A stretch of 64,000 bases of DNA from a virus, in IMG/VR virus record IMGVR_UViG_3300042367_000228, positions 186,001 through 250,000 of that record. The stretch is one strand, 5' to 3'. Made by a program: the position numbers and the translations under genes. The notes under the pieces were generated by a model. That model saw nothing but the letters and a program-made list of their open reading frames with translations, had not been told where the DNA came from and did not search any database. Each line of letters begins with the position of its first letter. Position 1 is the stretch's first letter. Positions 199-57,033 of the stretch are shown here, piece by piece.

Positions 199-579
199 TT
201 AGTACATCGGTTGACTAAAGTCAAACTCTTGTACAGTTGATGCGTTTGATGCGCCTAAATTAATGTCTGTAGGTCGATGATCTGATACTGCTAAAATTGA
301 CTTAGTTTCAACTCGTCTAACGGTGAATACAGTATTATTATCTTCTACTTGAACACCACGTGTCCACCGTCCGTGTTCAACTAAGATCCAATCACCAATT
401 TTTACATCGTGTTGATCAGGACCGATTTTATAAACTTTACCCCAACGAGGTTTAATTCCTTCAGTTTTTCCATTATCGCTACTAACAATAATACCGCTAG
501 CGGTTACTTGTTCTTCAAAATTCATATCCGAAACAAGTACATTATCATGAATAGTTTCTAATTGTTCTGTTATAATCAT
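199..579 (-). CDS. GroES-fold cochaperonin, T4 gp31-like
   Basis: 126 residues. The segment from residue 10 (IHDNVLVSDMNFEEQ), ASGIIV, then GKVYKIGP and VKIGDWILVEHGRW follows the GroES beta-barrel order: HDxVLV strand, mobile loop, glycine-hinge GxV, then a GDxV-like strand. The C-terminal ~35 residues are not GroES-like. T4 gp31 replaces GroES to fold the major capsid protein, and a similar role is inferred. A second, textbook GroES is encoded at 49408-49713, so this is probably the divergent head-assembly version. Its start overlaps the stop of the upstream gene by 4 bp, suggesting translational coupling. Confidence 0.7.
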   Translation of the reverse strand: MIITEQLETIHDNVLVSDMNFEEQVTASGIIVSSDNGKTEGIKPRWGKVYKIGPDQHDVKIGDWILVEHGRWTRGVQVEDNNTVFTVRRVETKSILAVSDHRPTDINLGASNASTVQEFDFSQPMY

Positions 580-6906: not shown

Positions 6907-7440
6907 ATGAAATGGGAAATAGATAAAGAGTTTCATTTTGAAATGGGACACAGAGTATGGGCACAAAAATTAAATCATGTTGAGTTAAGTATTTCAACTG
7001 ACTGTGCCTGCAAGCATTTACACGGACACAGCTATTCAATTAAAGTATTTTTAGGTTCTGATACGTTAGATCATTCAGAAATGGTTACAGACTTTAAGAA
7101 TTTAAACTTTATGAAACAATTTGTAGATGATGTGTTAGATCATAAGTTTATGATTGATATCAATGATCCAAACTTTAAGTTAATTACAGGTAACGAATGG
7201 AGCAAAGCCAAACACCCATTTGCAAACTTTACTAACTTAGGAAGTTACAACTGGGTTGGATTAACTGAAGGTGAACAATTACATTATAACAGTTTTGTAC
7301 TAGTAGATTTTGTACCAACTAGTGAAAACATTTGTAAGTATTTGTTTGAATATGCTCAATCACGTATAGGTGATGTAGCAAAGGTTACTGCAGTTGAGCT
7401 GTGGGAAACTCGCAAAAGCCATTGTAGATATACAGGATAA
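6907..7440 (+). CDS. queD: 6-carboxy-5,6,7,8-tetrahydropterin synthase (QueD/PTPS family)
   Basis: 177 residues. Motifs: FEMGHRVW (zinc His), CACKHLHGHSYSIKVFL (catalytic Cys and the HxHG zinc ligands), SEMVTDFKNL, VDDVLDHKFM, then PTSENICKYLF and VTAVELWETRKSHCRY. This is the QueD arrangement. A ~40-residue insertion lies between the DHK and PTSEN blocks. QueD makes the deazaguanine precursor used for queuosine or for 7-deazaguanine DNA modification in phages. No other que/dpd gene is in the window, so the endpoint cannot be decided. It has its own promoter and a terminator right after the stop. Confidence 0.88.
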   Translation: MKWEIDKEFHFEMGHRVWAQKLNHVELSISTDCACKHLHGHSYSIKVFLGSDTLDHSEMVTDFKNLNFMKQFVDDVLDHKFMIDINDPNFKLITGNEWSKAKHPFANFTNLGSYNWVGLTEGEQLHYNSFVLVDFVPTSENICKYLFEYAQSRIGDVAKVTAVELWETRKSHCRYTG

Positions 7441-7474: not shown

Positions 7475-8470
7475 TTACATAAATTCTTCTTTAAACTGGT
7501 CAAACAGTTCAAATGATGCTAGGTTCTTAGCTTTAGATTCCGCCATCATGTTACCCCATTCAAGATGTGTTAGTGCCCATCTGTTAATATCTTTATTTGT
7601 ATAAAAATCACTATGAGCTCGTAATTTACTTTTAGAAGTAGATTCAAGTAATGTTTCCATAGTTGTCATACCAGTACGAGGTATTAATTCTGATTTTGAT
7701 TGACTGTAATGGAATGTTGGTCTAACACCTTGCCAACTTTCAAGTACACCTTGTATTCTAGGATCAGATGCTTTTATATATTCGCCTGTTTTAATAAAAT
7801 GATGATGTATATCAAGCACGATACCAACCTTGTCTTTCAAAGCTAACAACTCATCTAACCCTTGTTGGTACTCGTCGTTCTCTAATGTTAAGCAGTTACG
7901 CAGTTCTGGACTCATTCGTTGCCATGCAGCATCAAAACCTGCTATACCACGTCTACCACTAACATGTACATTAATCTTAAAATCTAATTTAGACTGACCG
8001 AATCCCATAAATCTTGCCATGTCAGCGTGATATTCAAGTTCTTCCAAAGATCTAGTAATGACATCATCTCTGTCGCTAGCAATGCACACAAACTGACCAG
8101 GATGAAAACTGAGACGAATATTAGAATCTTTAGCATATTGTCCAATCTTAGATAAGTTTTGTTCGATAATTTTGATTCTTGATGGTTCTTGCCAAAAGCT
8201 GCGATATAAATCATGAGTATACATTGGAATAACATCAGACCCGATACGAACCATACGTAAATGTTCATCTAAAGTACCTACCTTTCTAATAAGATTAGAA
8301 GTTGCTGTGAGATTTTGCATAGCAATTTCCCACAGCTTTTTTTCTGCTACTTGTTTAGATTGACGACCTAGCCATGCAACTGTAGTTGCTCCCATGTTTA
8401 ATTCTTTAACATTTTCAAACCCGGTTTTAGTGCTGTCAACATACTTGCAAGCAAAGCCGATTTTTTTCAC
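7475..8470 (-). CDS. uvsE: UV damage endonuclease UvsE (UVDE)
   Basis: 331 residues, close to the usual length. It has the TIM-barrel UVDE signatures: KIGFACKY at the N-terminus, LRMVRIGSDVIPMYTH, RLSFHPGQF (metal His), INVHVSGRRGIAG, LTLENDEYQ (metal Glu), VGIVLDIHHHF (metal Asp/His), PTFHYSQSKSE. UvsE nicks DNA 5' of pyrimidine dimers and starts alternative excision repair. T4 itself uses DenV, so this is a different solution for photodamage. TATAAT sits at about 8490, but a well-spaced -35 is unclear. Confidence 0.92.
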   Translation of the reverse strand: MKKIGFACKYVDSTKTGFENVKELNMGATTVAWLGRQSKQVAEKKLWEIAMQNLTATSNLIRKVGTLDEHLRMVRIGSDVIPMYTHDLYRSFWQEPSRIKIIEQNLSKIGQYAKDSNIRLSFHPGQFVCIASDRDDVITRSLEELEYHADMARFMGFGQSKLDFKINVHVSGRRGIAGFDAAWQRMSPELRNCLTLENDEYQQGLDELLALKDKVGIVLDIHHHFIKTGEYIKASDPRIQGVLESWQGVRPTFHYSQSKSELIPRTGMTTMETLLESTSKSKLRAHSDFYTNKDINRWALTHLEWGNMMAESKAKNLASFELFDQFKEEFM

Positions 8471-36051: not shown

Positions 36052-36285
36052 CTAACGTTTAGCGTTGACAACCGTAATATCAGGTCCATTACTAACAAAA
36101 CTTAGTTGTCCCATATATCCTTCAAACTGATGACCATTCCACTCAAGATGTAATTTAACATTTTTATCAATTACTACGTTAAGGTGTTTCTTTTCCTTAA
36201 ACGATGCAACCTCTGCAACCATCTTTTTACCGTTATCTTCACAGATAATTTCGCATGTGTCATCTACATATTCTCGTCTTTGCAT
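36052..36285 (-). CDS. Small beta-rich protein of unknown function
   Basis: 77 residues (MQRREYVDDTCEIICEDNGK, ending TVVNAKR). Alternating beta strands and many charges. Its ATG overlaps the stop of the preceding small gene (TAATG). No family recognised. Confidence 0.5.
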   Translation of the reverse strand: MQRREYVDDTCEIICEDNGKKMVAEVASFKEKKHLNVVIDKNVKLHLEWNGHQFEGYMGQLSFVSNGPDITVVNAKR

Positions 36286-36449
36286 TATTCCCCCGATACA
36301 GCGTTATGAAGTTCGACTAGTTGTGCTTCTAATGTTGCAATGTAGTTTTCAAGTTTATCAATGTGATCTGCAACTTGAGTTAAAAAAGTGTTAGTATTAG
36401 TTGATGTTGTTCTAATCATCTCACTAATTGAAATTTTTTCTTCTGTCAT
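36285..36449 (-). CDS. Small coiled-coil protein (54 aa)
   Basis: ATG at 36449 (MTEEKISISEMIRTTSTNTN). The second half is a heptad-like helix (LTQVADHIDKLENYIATLEA). It is joined to its downstream neighbour by a TAATG overlap, and AAAGGAT precedes the start. Possibly an oligomerising partner of the adjacent regulator. Confidence 0.5.
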   Translation of the reverse strand: MTEEKISISEMIRTTSTNTNTFLTQVADHIDKLENYIATLEAQLVELHNAVSGE

Positions 36450-36799: not shown

Positions 36800-37579
36800 T
36801 TAAATAGTAATGTATTGTAACTTAAACTTATCATGCATGTGTTCTCCAGGATATCCTCTAGAATTGTTTAGCATAACACATTCGTTAACAATTGGTGTTT
36901 TTGGATCGTGTTGATGTCCAAAGAAAGCATAATCAAAATTAGTTAATAAATGATCTAAATTAGATCCAAACAACCCATTCATAATAGGATCATTTTTATA
37001 ATGATCAGCAGTTGTTTGCATCGATGGTGAATGATGAGTAATTAAAATATTGTTGTCATAACCAGCCTTGTCAACATGTTCCACCCATTTAACAAAGTGT
37101 TTATGACGTGCAAGTATGTCGGGTACACTAACACGAGCTTCGCCATTAAAAATAACTCGATAGTCATTTATTAATGTAGGTGCGCGTATTAATGTAAATG
37201 GATCTTCATTATTATAATCAGTCCATAATGTACCGCCTACAAACAAGTTATTATCGATGACTATATAGTCACCGTTGAGAATATGAAAGTTTTCGTATGG
37301 AAGTAATTCTTTCAATGTATCTATTGCTTCGTCAATCGACGAACCATAATATTCATGATTTCCCATAACCATAAGCACATGCTTAAACTTATCAGTAACA
37401 GTATCAAAGAAATTTGTAATATCGTCACCATCACTTGTTCTAGTTGATTCTGTAATTCTTTTAAATCTTGATACATTAAGTATATCTCCAGCTAAAATTA
37501 GCACATCTGCAGGTTCAATATCGTCTAAGATTAATGGTTCAAATTCAAAATGTAAATCTGATGCATAAGCAATTTTCAT
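36800..37579 (-). CDS. Calcineurin-like metallophosphoesterase
   Basis: 259 residues. All five motifs are present: DLHFEF, LAGDIL, MGNHEYYGS, ITHHSPS, FGHQHDP. Dinuclear-metal phosphoesterase; substrate unknown (nucleotide, RNA or protein phosphate). A second member is at 38207-38737, and a P-loop kinase lies nearby, so a role in end-healing or nucleotide metabolism is possible. Confidence 0.85.
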   Translation of the reverse strand: MKIAYASDLHFEFEPLILDDIEPADVLILAGDILNVSRFKRITESTRTSDGDDITNFFDTVTDKFKHVLMVMGNHEYYGSSIDEAIDTLKELLPYENFHILNGDYIVIDNNLFVGGTLWTDYNNEDPFTLIRAPTLINDYRVIFNGEARVSVPDILARHKHFVKWVEHVDKAGYDNNILITHHSPSMQTTADHYKNDPIMNGLFGSNLDHLLTNFDYAFFGHQHDPKTPIVNECVMLNNSRGYPGEHMHDKFKLQYITI

Positions 37580-37587
37580 ATTCTCTC

Positions 37588-37806
37588 CTACAATCTATAA
37601 ACAACTCTACCCTTGTTAAGATCGTATGCGCTAACTTCGATCTTAACTTTGTCACCAGCAATAACTCTAATCTTGTGCCGTTTAAGCTTCCCGCTTGTAT
37701 AGCACACTAATTCATGTTCAGATTGATCTATTTTAACTCTAAACATGTTACCCGGTAACACTTCATTTACTTTTCCTGTAAATTCAATTATATCTTCTTT
37801 GCTCAT
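37588..37806 (-). CDS. infA: Translation initiation factor IF-1
   Basis: 72 residues, exactly the length of bacterial IF-1. KEDIIEFTGKVNEVLPGNMF, then RVKIDQSEHELVCYTSGKLK, RHKIRVIAGDKVKIEVSAYD and LNKGRVVYRL align end to end with the OB fold of IF-1 (KEDxIExxGxVxExLPNxMFRVxLxNGHxVxAHISGKMRKNxIRIxxGDxVxVELxPYDLxKGRIxxR). IF-1 binds the 30S A site during initiation. A phage copy is very unusual and fits the other translation-related genes here. Confidence 0.92.
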   Translation of the reverse strand: MSKEDIIEFTGKVNEVLPGNMFRVKIDQSEHELVCYTSGKLKRHKIRVIAGDKVKIEVSAYDLNKGRVVYRL

Positions 37807-37818
37807 ATATCTCCAATG

Positions 37819-38148
37819 TTAGTATTTGTGAAAGCTGCCTTGAAAGCAATGACGAAGTTCATGTCCAAATGTCCAGTAGTCTGGAGTTCTTGATGTCATA
37901 ATAAGACATGAATCGCCAAATATTGTAGTAGTCCAAAATGAACACGCTTCGATCGGTTTAGGATAACCACTAAACCCTCGACGTTTACTTTCTTTGTCGC
38001 ACCCTGCTCTAATATCATCTACTTGAACCCATTTGACAGTTGTTTTATCTGTAAGATTAGTTTTTGCAGAAAACTTATCATATGGTGATTCAGCGGCAGT
38101 TGCAGTAATTGCAGTTAAGAACAATGTAGCAAAAAAAGCATGTTTCAT
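37819..38148 (-). CDS. Secreted protein with HExxH zinc-peptidase motif
   Basis: 109 residues from the ATG at 38148, chosen for SD GGGGTAA and an immediate signal peptide (MKHAFFATLFLTAITATAA). The mature part has four Cys and ends in GHELRHCFQGSFHKY, where HELRH fits HExxH. It resembles small exported proteins of mobile elements, though I cannot name the family. A periplasmic or lysis-related role is possible. Confidence 0.6.
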   Translation of the reverse strand: MKHAFFATLFLTAITATAAESPYDKFSAKTNLTDKTTVKWVQVDDIRAGCDKESKRRGFSGYPKPIEACSFWTTTIFGDSCLIMTSRTPDYWTFGHELRHCFQGSFHKY

Positions 38149-38181: not shown

Positions 38182-38210
38182 ATTATAGTACATTTTGTGT
38201 GCTACGTCAA
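38182..38210 (-). promoter_or_regulatory. Sigma70-like promoter
   Basis: TTGACG (38210-38205), 17 bases, TATAAT (38187-38182), 34 bases upstream of the secreted-protein gene. It overlaps the end of the phosphoesterase gene. Confidence 0.75.
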
Positions 38211-41142: not shown

Positions 41143-42555
41143 TTAGACCGCGTAGCGATCGTTCATAATTGTTTGTAACATAATTGCTTGTGGAGTAAAG
41201 TCATCCATATCAGCTGCAAGTACACTTGTCATAATACTTGGACTAAATCCACTTACTAATGCTGCACCTTTTGCATTATACTTAACTGGCACATTGTCAT
41301 GTGAGTTTAAGTTCCAAAATACAACTTGTGGTACTGTATACCCTGCATCTTCATACTTACGACGAATCATTTTTATTGCAGAATCATCATGTGTTACACA
41401 AGCATCAAATTGCATATCAGATAATATTAAAAGTATCTGTGGCATTTCTTCAACAGGTACATTACCATTAACTGCAACTTCTAAAATCTTAGAAAAAGCT
41501 GCATGTAAGTTAGTGCCCATTTGCCAATCACTTTTTGACATCTGCGCATACTTCTCAACTATATTACCTTTTAGTGTAACTAACTCTGGTTTAGAGCTAA
41601 ATGTTAAGAATGTGTCTTTAAACTTACCAGCATTTTTATCTGCTAAGTATATTCCTAAAGATAATGAAACATCCATACATGTAACAGTTTTGCTTTTACC
41701 TGCAGGACAGCCCATAGAACCTGATACATCAACTAATGGTAAAATACTTGCATCACCGACATAGTTAGGTAACGCGTCCCATTGTGCAATAATGTGTTGT
41801 TTTTCAAGTAGTGATGGTTGAGACCACCAACCACCTAACCCCTTAACAATTTCATATGGATAGATCGCACCTGCGTTAACTTTAACAGTTGGATCATCAC
41901 CTTTAACTAATTTAGCAATGTATTCAGCATACTTATCAGTGTGACGAGCAAATGCTTTTTTGTAGCGTGAAGAAGCTACAGATGGAACATGGCTAAAGTT
42001 AATAGCGTCCCATTGGTTAGCACACATTTGTGTTTCAACTACTTTAGTAAGTGAAACAAGTGTTTTGCGATAACGTTTTGGAGACCAACCTAAGTAGTTA
42101 CGTAATTGTACAGCAGTATCTCCTTTACGTGGAATCCATTTAGCAGCAAGTCCATTTTGCGCTTCTAATGCATCTTTAATTAATCCAAATGCATAGTCCT
42201 TTAAGTTTTGTGTTTTGAACACAAGTAAGTCATCGTAGCGACCGAGTTCAGGAACTTTAGCTGCAAGTTTTTTAGCAGCATCTGGATCTGAGTTTTCAAG
42301 ATGTAATAAAATATCTCTAAACAACTGACGTTCACCTGCACCGCCACGTACATCACGTACCCAAGCTGCAATACGTAATGCAAGATCTCTATCTTCTACA
42401 TAAGCAGCAACAAACTCTGGGGTGATGTTTTTCCCACGTGATGCACCTGCCTTAAAGAAGAGATCAACTAATGCACTTGAGGTTGATTTACGTGCTTTCA
42501 TACCGTTTTCAGTACGTGCTTCTTGATTTGCTATTGCTTCAATAAATGTTGACAT
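41143..42555 (-). CDS. Ro60/TROVE-like protein with von Willebrand A domain
   Basis: 470 residues. The N-terminal ~265 residues are helical repeats (LALRIAAWVRDVRGGAGERQ, LFRDIL, VPELGRYDDLLVF) typical of TROVE/DUF2828 proteins. The vWA domain has an intact MIDAS: DVSGSMG (Asp276, Ser278, Ser280), MGTNLHAAF (Thr348), LILSDMQFD (Asp380). Bacterial Ro60 binds Y RNAs and misfolded or 3'-ended RNAs for quality control, often beside RNA-repair genes. Here it lies beside a structured RNA (42892-43134) and shares the genome with RNA ligase, kinase and many RNA genes. SD GAGGAG; own promoter. Confidence 0.8.
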   Translation of the reverse strand: MSTFIEAIANQEARTENGMKARKSTSSALVDLFFKAGASRGKNITPEFVAAYVEDRDLALRIAAWVRDVRGGAGERQLFRDILLHLENSDPDAAKKLAAKVPELGRYDDLLVFKTQNLKDYAFGLIKDALEAQNGLAAKWIPRKGDTAVQLRNYLGWSPKRYRKTLVSLTKVVETQMCANQWDAINFSHVPSVASSRYKKAFARHTDKYAEYIAKLVKGDDPTVKVNAGAIYPYEIVKGLGGWWSQPSLLEKQHIIAQWDALPNYVGDASILPLVDVSGSMGCPAGKSKTVTCMDVSLSLGIYLADKNAGKFKDTFLTFSSKPELVTLKGNIVEKYAQMSKSDWQMGTNLHAAFSKILEVAVNGNVPVEEMPQILLILSDMQFDACVTHDDSAIKMIRRKYEDAGYTVPQVVFWNLNSHDNVPVKYNAKGAALVSGFSPSIMTSVLAADMDDFTPQAIMLQTIMNDRYAV

Positions 42556-43140: not shown

Positions 43141-43749
43141 TTAACCAACTTTCATTACAAAGTTGATTATAAATCTATTTTTATTAAATCTTGGATTTGA
43201 TGAAGCATGAAATCTATCTGATTCAAAAATTACTGCTCTGTTTCGTTTAGGTGTGACACGTTGATTAAGTGTTAATTGGGTTGGTGGTTGTCCACTAACT
43301 GGATCCCAGAATTCATTAAACAAGAATGTATCGCCGTCTGAATCGTTTACATAGTAAATCATACTGTAATGAGATCCAGTTTTATCATCAGTATGTGGAA
43401 AATTATAATGATCAGCTGATGCATTTGATTGTTTTAATAATAAGTTAACTTTAACTCGATCAACAGAACAAATATCTTTTTCAACGTGTTCACCTGCAGT
43501 AAATACTACTGCTTTAAGTCTTTCAAAATAATCTTTAAACTTAGATTCTTCAGTATATGACGAATTTAATAATGTACAAACAAACTGTCCATAGTCTTCA
43601 CAATTGTCATCTATAACAAATGATACATCACCGTATTGATCAGCTGATGATGTTTTTTCTTTGTATTTGTACATTAATTCAGTTTCAAGTTCATACTGAA
43701 TTTGATTAGCATACATTATTGGTAAAAAATTATCAATTACTTTAATCAT
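43141..43749 (-). CDS. 2OG-Fe(II) oxygenase
   Basis: 202 residues from the ATG at 43749, which overlaps the parvulin stop (TAATG). Motifs: HYNFPHTDDKTGSHYSMIYY (HxD), GDTFLF, RAVIFESDRFHASSNP (distal His) and RFIINFVMKVG (Arg for 2-oxoglutarate). The N-terminal half is a helical support domain. Substrate unknown. Divergent from the other oxygenase at 27879. Confidence 0.78.
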   Translation of the reverse strand: MIKVIDNFLPIMYANQIQYELETELMYKYKEKTSSADQYGDVSFVIDDNCEDYGQFVCTLLNSSYTEESKFKDYFERLKAVVFTAGEHVEKDICSVDRVKVNLLLKQSNASADHYNFPHTDDKTGSHYSMIYYVNDSDGDTFLFNEFWDPVSGQPPTQLTLNQRVTPKRNRAVIFESDRFHASSNPRFNKNRFIINFVMKVG

Positions 43750-44024
43750 TAACCGGTACGTTGAATTAAATGCCAACCAAACTGAGTTTGTACTGGTTTA
43801 CTAAAGTTACCAATGCCTAACGAAAATGCTGCTTCTTCAAATGGTTGAACCATTTGTCCTCGACCAAATGCGCCTAAGTTTCCACCACTTTGACCACTTG
43901 GACATTTACTATTGGTTAATGCTAACGCACCGAAATCTGCACCTTCGTTAACAATTTTATTGTATAAGTCATTTGCTTGTTCTTCAGTTTCTACTAAAAT
44001 GTGTTTTGCTTGAATTGATGTCAT
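43749..44024 (-). CDS. Parvulin-type peptidyl-prolyl isomerase
   Basis: 91 residues, one complete PpiC/rotamase domain: AKHILVETEEQANDLYNKI, GADFGALALTNSKCPSG, GGNLGAFGRGQMVQPFEEAA and TQFGWHLIQRTG. No signal peptide, so cytoplasmic. It may assist folding of virion proteins or of the linked oxygenase. Translation is coupled to the next gene. Confidence 0.9.
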   Translation of the reverse strand: MTSIQAKHILVETEEQANDLYNKIVNEGADFGALALTNSKCPSGQSGGNLGAFGRGQMVQPFEEAAFSLGIGNFSKPVQTQFGWHLIQRTG

Positions 44025-49407: not shown

Positions 49408-49713
49408 CTAATCTCTTAGGATAGCTAATACTTCATCTTCACGCATAATGATAACTTCATCATCATGTAATTTAATAGGCTCTCCAGCGTGCTTTCCGTA
49501 TAACACTTTATCGCCAATTGCAACTTTTATTTCTCGGAACTGACCATTATCCATATGTTTCCCTGTTCCTATTGCTAGTACTGTTCCAATTACAGATTTC
49601 TCTTTTGAAACAGGTGCAATTAAAATACCACCTTCCGTTATACTTTCTGCAGGATCTTGTCTTACAACAATACGATCGTGCAAAGGAATTACGTTTTCTT
49701 GTGTTACTGCCAT
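49408..49713 (-). CDS. groES: GroES cochaperonin (10 kDa)
   Basis: 101 residues, end-to-end bacterial-type GroES: IPLHDRIVVRQDPAES, TEGGILIAP (mobile loop), GTVLAIGTG, VAIGDKVLYGKHAGEPIKLH, DDEVIIMREDEVLAIL. It caps GroEL for folding. This is the second GroES-fold protein of the window (see 199-579); no GroEL is present, so it would act with the host's. Own promoter. Confidence 0.95.
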   Translation of the reverse strand: MAVTQENVIPLHDRIVVRQDPAESITEGGILIAPVSKEKSVIGTVLAIGTGKHMDNGQFREIKVAIGDKVLYGKHAGEPIKLHDDEVIIMREDEVLAILRD

Positions 49714-50275: not shown

Positions 50276-50425
50276 TTAACATCTCCACATTACTACTGGC
50301 CAAAAGACCATGCGGTGTGTCCATGACACTAAACTTCCAGCATCATCACTGTTATCAAATGACAACGTTGCAAAAAGTGCACCTGCTATGTAGTACGCTA
50401 TTGCTATCATTATTAAAAATTCCAT
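50276..50425 (-). CDS. Small membrane protein (49 aa)
   Basis: ATG at 50425 overlaps the RNA ligase stop (TAATG). MEFLIMIAIAYYIAGALFAT is one span; the tail has a second aromatic stretch (MVFWPVVMWRC). Translationally coupled to RNA ligase. Confidence 0.55.
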   Translation of the reverse strand: MEFLIMIAIAYYIAGALFATLSFDNSDDAGSLVSWTHRMVFWPVVMWRC

Positions 50426-51528
50426 TACATTTCCTCTTGGGCTAAAAACCATGTACGTGCTACATATTTAACTCTTGTTATTACATCTTTGATTTCTAGA
50501 TGGCTAGCAACAAGTGTATCAGTTTCTTCTTTAACAACATCGTCTGCAATCCATTTTAAGAATACAGGAGTGCTTTTAGGTTCAATACTGATGTTGTTTA
50601 CTTTTAAGTATTCTAAACCTTGAGTAAGTCTAGATTCAGTAACTACTGTATCAGCAAACTCGTTAATGGAGTTAACTTTTTCTACATCAACACTTGCTAG
50701 TGTTTTAACTTTAGATGAACTGTGTTTTTCACCTTTAACTTTAAACATAAATCGTGATTGTTCATAACCAGGAGTAACACATTTCCAAACAATACCTTCA
50801 CCTACACCTTCAACACCAAAGTGTTGAGCAATTGGACATTGTTGTTCTACTGCAACAGTAAGATCCGCAAGCTTGTTTTGCGCAAGCTCAGGTTCGTTAA
50901 AGTTGATATCCATTGTGTATGTTTGGAAGTCATAAATTGTAAATAAATTTTCAGGCCATGCTTCGGTATTAAAACCTGCAATTTCTTTAGCATACGCAAT
51001 AGTATGCTTAAACTCAGTTGGAGTAAAATAAACGCGTTGAACATCTTCGTCTTCATTTTTACCAGCTGACCATGCAACAATGCCAAAGATAATAAACATT
51101 TTAGGAACATTACTAATTCCTACACCTTTTTGAACACCTTGCCCGCACCATTCGCCAAAGATAGAATAATGTGTTAAGTTGTAATCAACTTTGTGATGTG
51201 CAGCTGAAGTTAATAAGTTAATAAACGTTTCTTTATGTTGTTGTGCATATTTTGCCCAACCATAATTGTCATCATCTATTGTTAAAATACGTTCACGTGA
51301 TTGCGCCCAAAATTCATTATATTTAGGAAACTCGCAAGCAACGCTAGCATTAGTGCCATGTGCCTTAACAGAACCTTCAAACGTTAAAGTTGGCATAGGT
51401 GCAAATGGATCAAAGGTTGGTGCACCATTGTCATCTAACCCTTTAAAGGTAGCACGACTTTTAACTTCTCTAACTACTTGTCTAAATTGATTAATGCTGG
51501 GCCATGATTTGTGTACTTGTTTTGACAT
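50425..51528 (-). CDS. RNA ligase, T4 Rnl2-like nucleotidyltransferase
   Basis: 367 residues. Motif I FEGSVKAHGTNAS with the adenylated Lys55; motif III YSIFGEWCG near 125; motif IV GEGIVWKCV near 255; motif V FMFKVKGEKHSSSKVK near 272. The C-terminal ~95 helical residues fit an Rnl2-type regulatory domain. It seals nicks or ends in RNA, for example after anticodon-nuclease attack. In this genome it could also join the ends of the permuted tRNAs (inference). Consensus promoter upstream. Confidence 0.88.
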   Translation of the reverse strand: MSKQVHKSWPSINQFRQVVREVKSRATFKGLDDNGAPTFDPFAPMPTLTFEGSVKAHGTNASVACEFPKYNEFWAQSRERILTIDDDNYGWAKYAQQHKETFINLLTSAAHHKVDYNLTHYSIFGEWCGQGVQKGVGISNVPKMFIIFGIVAWSAGKNEDEDVQRVYFTPTEFKHTIAYAKEIAGFNTEAWPENLFTIYDFQTYTMDINFNEPELAQNKLADLTVAVEQQCPIAQHFGVEGVGEGIVWKCVTPGYEQSRFMFKVKGEKHSSSKVKTLASVDVEKVNSINEFADTVVTESRLTQGLEYLKVNNISIEPKSTPVFLKWIADDVVKEETDTLVASHLEIKDVITRVKYVARTWFLAQEEM

Positions 51529-55421: not shown

Positions 55422-56615
55422 ATGAAAATACAAGAAATTATAAGCGAAGCAATATCAGGTGCTCACTGGATACACGGATTGCACAATGGGTTAAATGATA
55501 TTTTAGAACAACCGTTAGGACTTACATTTAACTTAGAAACTATAAATGGATTTAATGCCATTGCAGTATACCTTAAAGATATGTCCGACGGCAGGATATG
55601 TAGTTTTTATGAGAAAATGCAACCTAGTGATATTATTTACATGTTAGAAGAGATAGTAAAGATAGCACATTATGTTATACAGCAGAAATATGCTAAAGTG
55701 TGCGCGGATGTAAGTGGAACAAACTTTTCTCATATTCAAATTCTACCTCAGTCTAATAATCCAGGAGCCCTCGCCTCGGCTGGTTATGACTATGTAACAT
55801 TCTATGAAACTGATAAGAATGCTTTCCAACATCGAGATATAGATATGCTAAAAGACTTGTTATATAGTACAGAAGCAATGACTGATGTTAACAGAGGATG
55901 GAGTAATGCTGAACAAAAGAATCTATATGTGCCTGTGATAACTGATATGTTTCAAATCGAACCTGCATTTAGAAATTTGAAACTAGGTGATTTTAGTTTA
56001 GCTGAATTCTTCTTAGACACTAAAAACATAGATACTATGGTTCACGAATTAGTACATATTAGACAACACGCACCTCAATCTAGATATAAAACTAAACGAG
56101 TATTTGATAAAGATACTAAACAGCACAAATTGGTTACTAAACAAGGCACTGAATTTAGAAGTAAAGTAGAGCCAAATCAAGAAAAGTTTTATAATGCAAT
56201 TAGAGATTTAGATAAGTCGCCTGAAAACTATAAAATATATAGTTCGTCGTTACAAGAAATACCAGCACATGCGCATGATGCAGCAGTTAGCGTTATACGT
56301 CATTTAGATTTTGCATGGGGCGGTTCGGTTGATGAATATGGCAGAGACGTGTCACATTTAAAATCTCAAGTAAAAGCACTTAAATTGATTATTGCTAATT
56401 TGTCTAATGGACCAACCGCGTTAAAAGATGTTTATGGTCACCCGATTAAAATTAGAAGATTTGAATATTTCAGTAAGACATTTAATCATCCTAACGATAA
56501 AAAGTTATATCCGGTATATAAAAAATTTGTAAAAATAATGAGTCAAGAATTAATCAATTATTACAATTATTGGAATGAAAAACTTATTAACCTTAGTAAA
56601 TCAAATGGTCAATAA
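55422..56615 (+). CDS. Putative zinc metallopeptidase with capsid-targeting-type N-terminus
   Basis: 397 residues. MKIQEIISE|AISGAH has the I-S-E|A prohead-protease-type site. TMVHELVHIRQHAPQSRYKT at ~205-225 has HExxH with a following His. SLQEIPAHAHDAAVSVIRHL near 285 could supply the third ligand (Glu). The N-terminal ~190 residues are unassigned. A packaged, injected peptidase is inferred. Terminator follows. Confidence 0.62.
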   Translation: MKIQEIISEAISGAHWIHGLHNGLNDILEQPLGLTFNLETINGFNAIAVYLKDMSDGRICSFYEKMQPSDIIYMLEEIVKIAHYVIQQKYAKVCADVSGTNFSHIQILPQSNNPGALASAGYDYVTFYETDKNAFQHRDIDMLKDLLYSTEAMTDVNRGWSNAEQKNLYVPVITDMFQIEPAFRNLKLGDFSLAEFFLDTKNIDTMVHELVHIRQHAPQSRYKTKRVFDKDTKQHKLVTKQGTEFRSKVEPNQEKFYNAIRDLDKSPENYKIYSSSLQEIPAHAHDAAVSVIRHLDFAWGGSVDEYGRDVSHLKSQVKALKLIIANLSNGPTALKDVYGHPIKIRRFEYFSKTFNHPNDKKLYPVYKKFVKIMSQELINYYNYWNEKLINLSKSNGQ

Positions 56616-56616
56616 A

Positions 56617-56638
56617 AAAGCTGCCCTAAGGCAGCTTT
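56617..56638. terminator. Bidirectional terminator between the peptidase gene and tmRNA
   Basis: AAAGCTGCC-ctaa-GGCAGCTTT with A-run on the left giving a U-tract to the minus strand. Ends tmRNA transcription and the plus-strand operon. Confidence 0.88.
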
Positions 56639-56639
56639 A

Positions 56640-57033
56640 GTTGTATTTTGGTTAATAAGGCATACATGCCCCAGAGGGGTAGGTTATTAAGCTACCATGT
56701 CAGCTGCTTCCAAAGAGAAGTCAACTGTCATATACTCGAATTTAGATGCTTTTGCGTCTATAAGTTTTGCGCTGTTTAGGACAGTCACCTCACCTGTTGC
56801 CGTCTCCATTATCTCACCAAGTCGAATCCAATTCATCCCCATTATAAAACACACTATCACTTCCCATTTGAGGGGCAGGAAGTCTACGGCTGTTGCCCCA
56901 CTCCGATACCTCTAATGTGTTTTATGGTGGAGATGTGGGGTTTCGAACCCCAGTGTTTGATGCCGTCACTTTGAAGGAATTACAACAATAATAAACACAC
57001 TAAAATATTTAATGTGCTTATTATTGTTAACTT
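56640..57033 (-). ncRNA. ssrA: tmRNA, circularly permuted (two-piece type)
   Basis: Minus-strand order: acceptor piece first, with T arm TGGGG-TTCGAAA-CCCCA (56952-56936), acceptor 3' strand CATCTCC, A and encoded CCA (56927-56925). After an ~84-base linker bracketed by ATAAAACACA/TGTGTTTTAT comes the coding piece GGGGATGAATTGGATTCGAC (from 56840), the hallmark tmRNA 5' end. GGGGATG pairs with CATCTCC. The tag frame ends ...SLEAADMVA then TAATAA (56689-56684) in the context GCTTAATAACC, as in E. coli ssrA. Tag length is 20-27 residues depending on the resume codon. This order is that of alphaproteobacterial and some other two-piece tmRNAs. Confidence 0.92.

What the first reader, a model, noticed from the sequence alone, without database searches (positions are those of the whole stretch)
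37588..37806. Phage-encoded translation initiation factor IF-1
Full-length infA homologue in an operon of nucleic-acid and regulatory genes. Few phages are known to carry initiation factors. It could favour phage mRNA initiation after host takeover, alongside tmRNA and tRNAs.
Basis: partly seen in the sequence, partly recalled or inferred. Interest (0 to 1): 0.78.

Follow-up and report, generated by a model that had tools for sequence, protein, structure and literature searches.

The report
Jumbo-phage translation initiation factor IF-1
A giant bacterial virus carries its own intact copy of a small bacterial protein that helps ribosomes start making proteins; such copies were already known in huge phages, but here the gene proves old, strongly conserved and often paired with a second ribosome gene.

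Summary
Confirmed. The minus-strand ORF 37806..37588 encodes a full-length 72-aa bacterial IF-1: NCBIfam infA equivalog 90.6 bits (cut-off 61.15), and an AlphaFold OB fold that matches 30S-bound E. coli IF1 (TM 0.92, 1.1 Å). It is not host contamination: it sits in a 372-kb virus record and in syntenic position in 33 other IMG/VR contigs. All eight ClpP-selected related contigs of at least 225 kb also encode an IF-1. It is under purifying selection (dN/dS about 0.02-0.17) and forms its own clade (100/100), at most 54-56% identical to any cellular IF-1 sampled. The C-terminal Arg that E. coli IF1 needs is invariant. The gene lies in an operon behind a conserved near-consensus sigma-70 promoter. 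The genome also encodes bS21, tRNAs and a permuted tmRNA; no IF3 or SmpB was found. Best reading: a working IF-1 that supplements or replaces host IF-1 on 30S subunits. Preference for phage mRNAs is untested. Phage IF1 was reported in huge phages in 2020 and as a core gene of Jug phages in 2025, so this is a new member of a known kind. New here: clade depth, promoter, frequent bS21 pairing, phage-only residues.

The parts
37588..37806 (-). infA homologue, 72-aa IF-1 (ATG at 37806, TAG at 37588)
   Evidence: Family matches; OB-fold model; conserved and syntenic in 33 contigs; dN/dS 0.02-0.17
37811..37814 (-). Shine-Dalgarno-like GGAG of the IF-1 gene
   Evidence: Read directly; GGAG also at this place in L002-L011
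38182..38210 (-). sigma-70 promoter TTGACG-17-TATAAT (11/12) of the IF-1 operon
   Evidence: same site at -397 to -428 from IF-1 in L002-L011; an 11-12/12 promoter 0.3-1.25 kb upstream in 16 of 23 more distant contigs
37819..38148 (-). small protein with signal-peptide-like N-terminus, first gene behind the promoter; start re-assigned to ATG 38148 because the ORF-finder start 38193 lies inside the promoter
   Evidence: homologues upstream of IF-1 in most related contigs
36800..37579 (-). calcineurin-like metallophosphoesterase, next gene downstream (8 bp from the IF-1 stop)
   Evidence: PF00149 8.1e-13; adjacent in L002-L018, further away in L019-L034
36458..36790 (-). Fis-type HTH_8 protein, same operon
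   Evidence: PF02954 1.6e-06
36285..36449 (-). 54-aa ORF, same operon, conserved in relatives
36052..36285 (-). 77-aa ORF, probable last gene of the operon; the next promoter (12/12, 36049-36021) drives clpP
56596..57017 (-). permuted tmRNA, a further translation gene of the same phage, behind a 12/12 promoter (57067-57040)

Best explanation
The gene encodes a functional bacterial-type IF-1 of a jumbo phage. Shown from sequence: full-length family membership, OB fold, kept 30S-contact residues, purifying selection, syntenic retention across related jumbo phages, a consensus host-type promoter and a ribosome-binding site. Inferred: host RNA polymerase transcribes the operon; the protein binds the A site of host 30S subunits (helix 44, S12, A1492/A1493) as host IF-1 does; and it keeps or raises initiation capacity during infection by supplementing or replacing host IF-1, in a phage that also supplies bS21, tRNAs and tmRNA. 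Specific preference for phage mRNAs is not part of this claim.
For: infA equivalog above cut-off; model superposes on 30S-bound E. coli IF1 9fco_I (TMq 0.92, 1.1 A) and Thermus 1hr0_W (0.91, 1.4 A); E. coli R69 = R71 invariant, K65-G66-R67 and Y61-D62 invariant (role of R69 from PMC4611024); dN/dS 0.02-0.17; syntenic in 33 contigs and better conserved than its neighbours; present in all eight ClpP-selected contigs of at least 225 kb; bS21 in the same genome and in 8 of 11 IF-1-bearing records of that set; conserved sigma-70 promoter and Shine-Dalgarno site.
Against: No expression, ribosome-binding or complementation data. Host not identified, so host IF-1 cannot be compared directly. The clade has a long stem and phage-only changes in the loop between strands 3 and 4 (K45, C35, one extra residue near position 29), which could alter function. 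IF-1 without IF2 or IF3 does nothing alone, so host factors must cooperate.
Confidence: 0.72

Rival explanations
1. Specialised (hijacking) IF-1: with its altered loop, and with phage bS21, it remodels the 30S subunit so that phage mRNAs are initiated in preference to host mRNAs.
For: Clade-invariant K45 (E. coli Y43; 0 of 65 cellular IF-1s) and C35 (4 of 65), plus an extra loop residue; frequent co-occurrence with bS21, another initiating-30S component; the idea was proposed for huge phages.
Against: All canonical contacts are kept; the expected behaviour of such a protein is general IF-1 activity. Phage genes carry ordinary Shine-Dalgarno sites (21 of 44 against 7% by chance), so no special leader class is evident. 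The changes may be drift or host adaptation.
Confidence: 0.15
2. Off-ribosome role: an RNA chaperone or transcription antiterminator, as reported for E. coli IF1, acting on structured phage transcripts.
For: E. coli IF1 has RNA-chaperone and antitermination activity and can replace cold-shock proteins in Bacillus subtilis (PMC3017892); basic OB-fold protein, pI 9.4.
Against: The selection pattern keeps the 30S-contact residues, including the C-terminal Arg, which a pure chaperone would not need; genome carries other translation genes.
Confidence: 0.08
3. Host contamination, chimeric assembly or a decaying captured host gene.
For: Some database 'phage' IF-1 hits are bacterial contigs, for example Acinetobacter phage MD-2021a with asd, leuB, leuC and leuD beside infA.
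Against: Synteny with phage genes in 33 contigs, no cellular IF-1 closer than 54-56%, monophyletic clade at 100/100, dN/dS far below 1.
Confidence: 0.02
4. OB domain of RsgA type rather than IF-1.
For: Weak RsgA_N match, E 0.00053.
Against: 20.1 bits against a cut-off of 27, no GTPase domain in a 72-aa protein, infA equivalog at 90.6 bits; the first 14 fold matches are IF-1s.
Confidence: 0.01

Closest known systems
Bacterial translation initiation factor IF-1 (infA, TIGR00008; E. coli IF1, T. thermophilus IF1 in 1HR0)
   Same: Length, OB fold, invariant C-terminal Arg and the KGR motif, family score above cut-off
   Different: At most 54-56% identical; clade-specific K45 and C35, extra loop residue; encoded by a phage in a phage operon
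IF1 genes of huge phages (Al-Shayeb et al. 2020, PMC7162821; Lak phages; Sinorhizobium phage Phosso)
   Same: Full-length IF-1 in a genome above 200 kb with other translation genes
   Different: 35-50% identical to those public-phage IF-1s; own monophyletic lineage and neighbourhood
Jug-phage core initiation factor 1A (PMC12363816)
   Same: An IF-1-type gene kept as a core gene of a huge-phage group
   Different: Gut phages of predicted Bacteroides/Phocaeicola hosts; sequences not compared here
Phage-encoded ribosomal protein bS21 (PMC9723584)
   Same: Phage-encoded component of the initiating 30S subunit, present in this genome too
   Different: A ribosomal protein, not a factor; reported as transcribed with late structural genes, whereas IF-1 here has a host-type promoter

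Membership tests
Bacterial IF-1 (infA) | Scores above the curated infA equivalog cut-off over the full model | tested here: met
   90.6 bits vs 61.15, model positions 1-69 of 69
Bacterial IF-1 (infA) | Single five-stranded OB fold like solved IF-1s | tested here: met
   Model pLDDT 88.9; top PDB matches are IF-1s, TMq 0.89-0.92
Bacterial IF-1 (infA) | C-terminal Arg (E. coli R69) and other conserved contact residues kept | tested here: met
   R71 invariant in 15 of 15; K65, G66, R67, Y61, D62 invariant; R47 is R in 12 and K in 3
Bacterial IF-1 (infA) | Binds the A site of the 30S subunit and stimulates initiation with IF2 and IF3 | not testable with these tools
   Needs biochemistry
Bacterial IF-1 (infA) | Can replace infA in vivo | not testable with these tools
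   Needs a depletion strain
Huge-phage IF1 genes | Encoded in a phage genome above 200 kb, not host DNA | tested here: met
   372-kb virus record; syntenic in 33 viral contigs
Huge-phage IF1 genes | Common descent with published huge-phage IF1s | tested here: inconclusive
   One viral clade neither shown nor rejected, p-AU 0.211; tree with added sequences unresolved
RsgA N-terminal domain | Score above the RsgA_N cut-off and fusion to a GTPase | tested here: not met
   20.1 bits vs 27; 72-aa protein

The most novel reading that the evidence does not exclude
This clade's IF-1 (loop signature CY..G[KR]LK[QR]HK, extra loop residue) together with the phage's own bS21 makes a phage-programmed 30S subunit whose start-site choice differs from the host's and favours phage mRNAs.
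Probability: 0.15. Interest if true: 0.8.

Novelty: new member of a known kind. Interest (0 to 1): 0.4.

Why it matters
It adds an old, strongly conserved lineage to the phage-encoded IF-1s and shows that the gene is usually kept in a wide set of related jumbo phages, often with bS21. The 2020 proposal that huge phages take over the initiation step then becomes directly testable with two small proteins in a reconstituted translation system. The host-type promoter predicts that IF-1 is made without waiting for late phage transcription.

Tried and rejected
Host contamination: rejected by synteny, distance from cellular IF-1s and selection. RsgA-domain identity: rejected. Recent capture from a host: no close cellular donor in a scan of one genome per GTDB species (best about 54%; the scan used two peptide patterns and so is not exhaustive) or in 143 genomes of the class of a betaproteobacterial record (best 54%). 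One versus several viral origins: unresolved with about 70 columns (p-AU 0.211; second tree). The first AlphaFold job with phage sequences only was poor (pLDDT 69.6); a deeper alignment fixed it. IF3 and SmpB searches in the genome found nothing. No paper testing a phage IF-1 was found in the held library. Host identification was not achieved; the tmRNA is of permuted/betaproteobacterial type, a hint only.

Full report
Observation. The finding's coordinates hold an open reading frame on the minus strand only: 72 codons, ATG start, TAG stop, with a GGAG motif just upstream. It is a bacterial IF-1 by every family test: Pfam eIF-1a 72.1 bits, NCBIfam infA equivalog 90.6 bits against a cut-off of 61.15, and phmmer matches to E. 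coli and other solved IF-1s. In PHROGs it falls in phrog_30201, labelled 'unknown function'. The record is a 372,016-bp virus contig with one IF-1.

Is it really the phage's own? Yes. A scan of IMG/VR gave 43 loci. In 33 of them (L002-L034, including one of 372,173 bp) the IF-1 is 63-100% identical, and nearly all of those contigs share neighbours with the window: the small protein upstream, the phosphoesterase downstream, ClpP and others. IF-1 is kept much better than its neighbours; in L012 it is 76% identical while the flanking genes are 35-39%. Pairwise dN/dS, where dS is not saturated, is 0.02-0.17, so the protein is under purifying selection. By contrast, one 'phage' hit in the public collection is plainly a bacterial contig.

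How widespread is it? I selected relatives by ClpP, not by IF-1, and searched 17 of those contigs as whole records. IF-1 was in 11 of 17 and in all eight of at least 225 kb; the six without it are 87-204 kb and may be fragments. Two of the eight (364 and 286 kb) have identical IF-1s and may be the same phage, and the two with the most distant ClpP (54-56%) may not belong to the same group. bS21 was in 11 of 17, and in 8 of the 11 with IF-1. The window's own genome encodes a full-length bS21 at G000:C1:285560-285715, as do five of seven IF-1-bearing relatives tested. No IF3 or SmpB match was found in it.

Origin. On a tree of 90 sequences the 15 IF-1s of the window's clade form one group at 100/100 on a long stem. 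No cellular IF-1 comes nearer than 54-56%. The clade is separate from the Lak, Phosso and other viral IF-1s on this tree, but a single viral origin is not rejected (p-AU 0.211). With about 70 columns deep forks are not resolved; a second tree with ten more IF-1s kept the window's clade (99/99, joined by L263) and scattered the other nine.

Structure and residues. AlphaFold with a 54-sequence alignment gives a confident five-stranded OB fold (mean pLDDT 88.9). Foldseek's best PDB matches are all IF-1s, including 30S-bound E. coli IF1 (9fco_I, TMq 0.92, 1.1 A) and the Thermus IF1-30S complex 1hr0_W (0.91, 1.4 A). E. coli R69, reported essential for 30S binding (PMC4611024), is R71 here and invariant; K65, G66, R67, Y61 and D62 are invariant too. 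The clade differs from cells in and near the loop between strands 3 and 4, described as flexible in E. coli IF1: K45 (E. coli Y43) is in 15 of 15 clade members and 0 of 65 cells, C35 in 15 of 15 against 4 of 65, and most members have an extra residue near position 29. These are the best candidates for any specialised behaviour, but they may be drift.

Expression signals. An 11/12 sigma-70 promoter (TTGACG-17-TATAAT, 38210..38182) stands before the first gene of the operon. It is at the same place in L002-L011, and an 11-12/12 promoter lies 0.3-1.25 kb upstream of IF-1 in 16 of the 23 more distant contigs. Because of it the first gene's start is better read at 38148 than at 38193. The window holds 11 exact 12/12 promoters, all on the minus strand, against 0.26 expected in Markov-1 random sequence; among others they precede the tmRNA, a GroES-like gene, an RNA ligase, the DNA ligase and ClpP. 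That host RNA polymerase reads these genes from the start of infection is an inference.

Mechanism. IF-1 sits in the A site of the 30S subunit between helix 44 and uS12, stabilises flipped A1492 and A1493, and supports accurate initiation (PMC4611024, PMC13345285). The anatomy here fits the same activity on host ribosomes. Whether the phage copy only secures the supply of IF-1 or biases initiation towards phage mRNAs cannot be told from sequence. I put supply or replacement first, specialised preference second and off-ribosome RNA chaperoning, known for E. coli IF1 (PMC3017892), third.

Known or new. IF1 and IF3 in huge phages were reported in 2020 with the proposal that they redirect host translation (PMC7162821). 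Initiation factor 1A is listed as a conserved gene of all Jug-phage groups (PMC12363816), IF3 is noted in other jumbo phages (PMC7824862, PMC11242549), and Sinorhizobium phage Phosso carries an annotated IF-1. I found no paper that tests a phage IF-1. The finding is a new member of a known kind.

Noticed in passing
window 56596-57017 (-): Permuted (two-piece type) tmRNA: Rfam tmRNA_permuted 101.9 bits, beta_tmRNA 90.4 bits, predicted tag AKASKFEYMTVDFSLEAADMVA, behind a 12/12 sigma-70 promoter; no SmpB found in the genome.
   Followed up: partly
window 179-59222 (-): Eleven exact TTGACA-16/18-TATAAT promoters, all on the minus strand (0.26 expected on both strands), mostly in the non-structural half: probably a host-sigma-70 gene set.
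   Followed up: partly
window 199-579 (-) and 49408-49713 (-): Two Cpn10/GroES-like genes in one phage window (1.9e-07 and 1.1e-25).
   Followed up: no
window 60387-62435 (-): CHASE2 domain plus adenylate/guanylate cyclase domain, a bacterial-type signalling protein unusual for a phage.
   Followed up: no
window 41143-42555 (-): DUF2828/DUF7788 protein, annotated as RNA-binding in Listeria phages, conserved next to the IF-1 region in relatives.
   Followed up: no
window 6907-7440 (+), 7475-8470 (-), 43749-44024 (-), 50425-51528 (-): PTPS/QueD-like protein, UvdE endonuclease, PpiC-type prolyl isomerase and RNA ligase genes.
   Followed up: no
L126 (CAKLQH020000005.1): Public 'Acinetobacter phage MD-2021a' record carries asd, truA, ansA, leuB, leuC and leuD around infA and looks like bacterial chromosome, so its IF-1 should not be counted as viral.
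   Followed up: yes
L169 627-932 (+): Divergent IF-1-like gene annotated 'hypothetical protein' near the start of Bacteroides phages DAC16 and relatives (37-39% identity).
   Followed up: partly
window 37588-37806 (-): PHROGs family phrog_30201 ('unknown function') matches this IF-1 at 5.1e-24, so PHROGs-based annotation would miss it.
   Followed up: no
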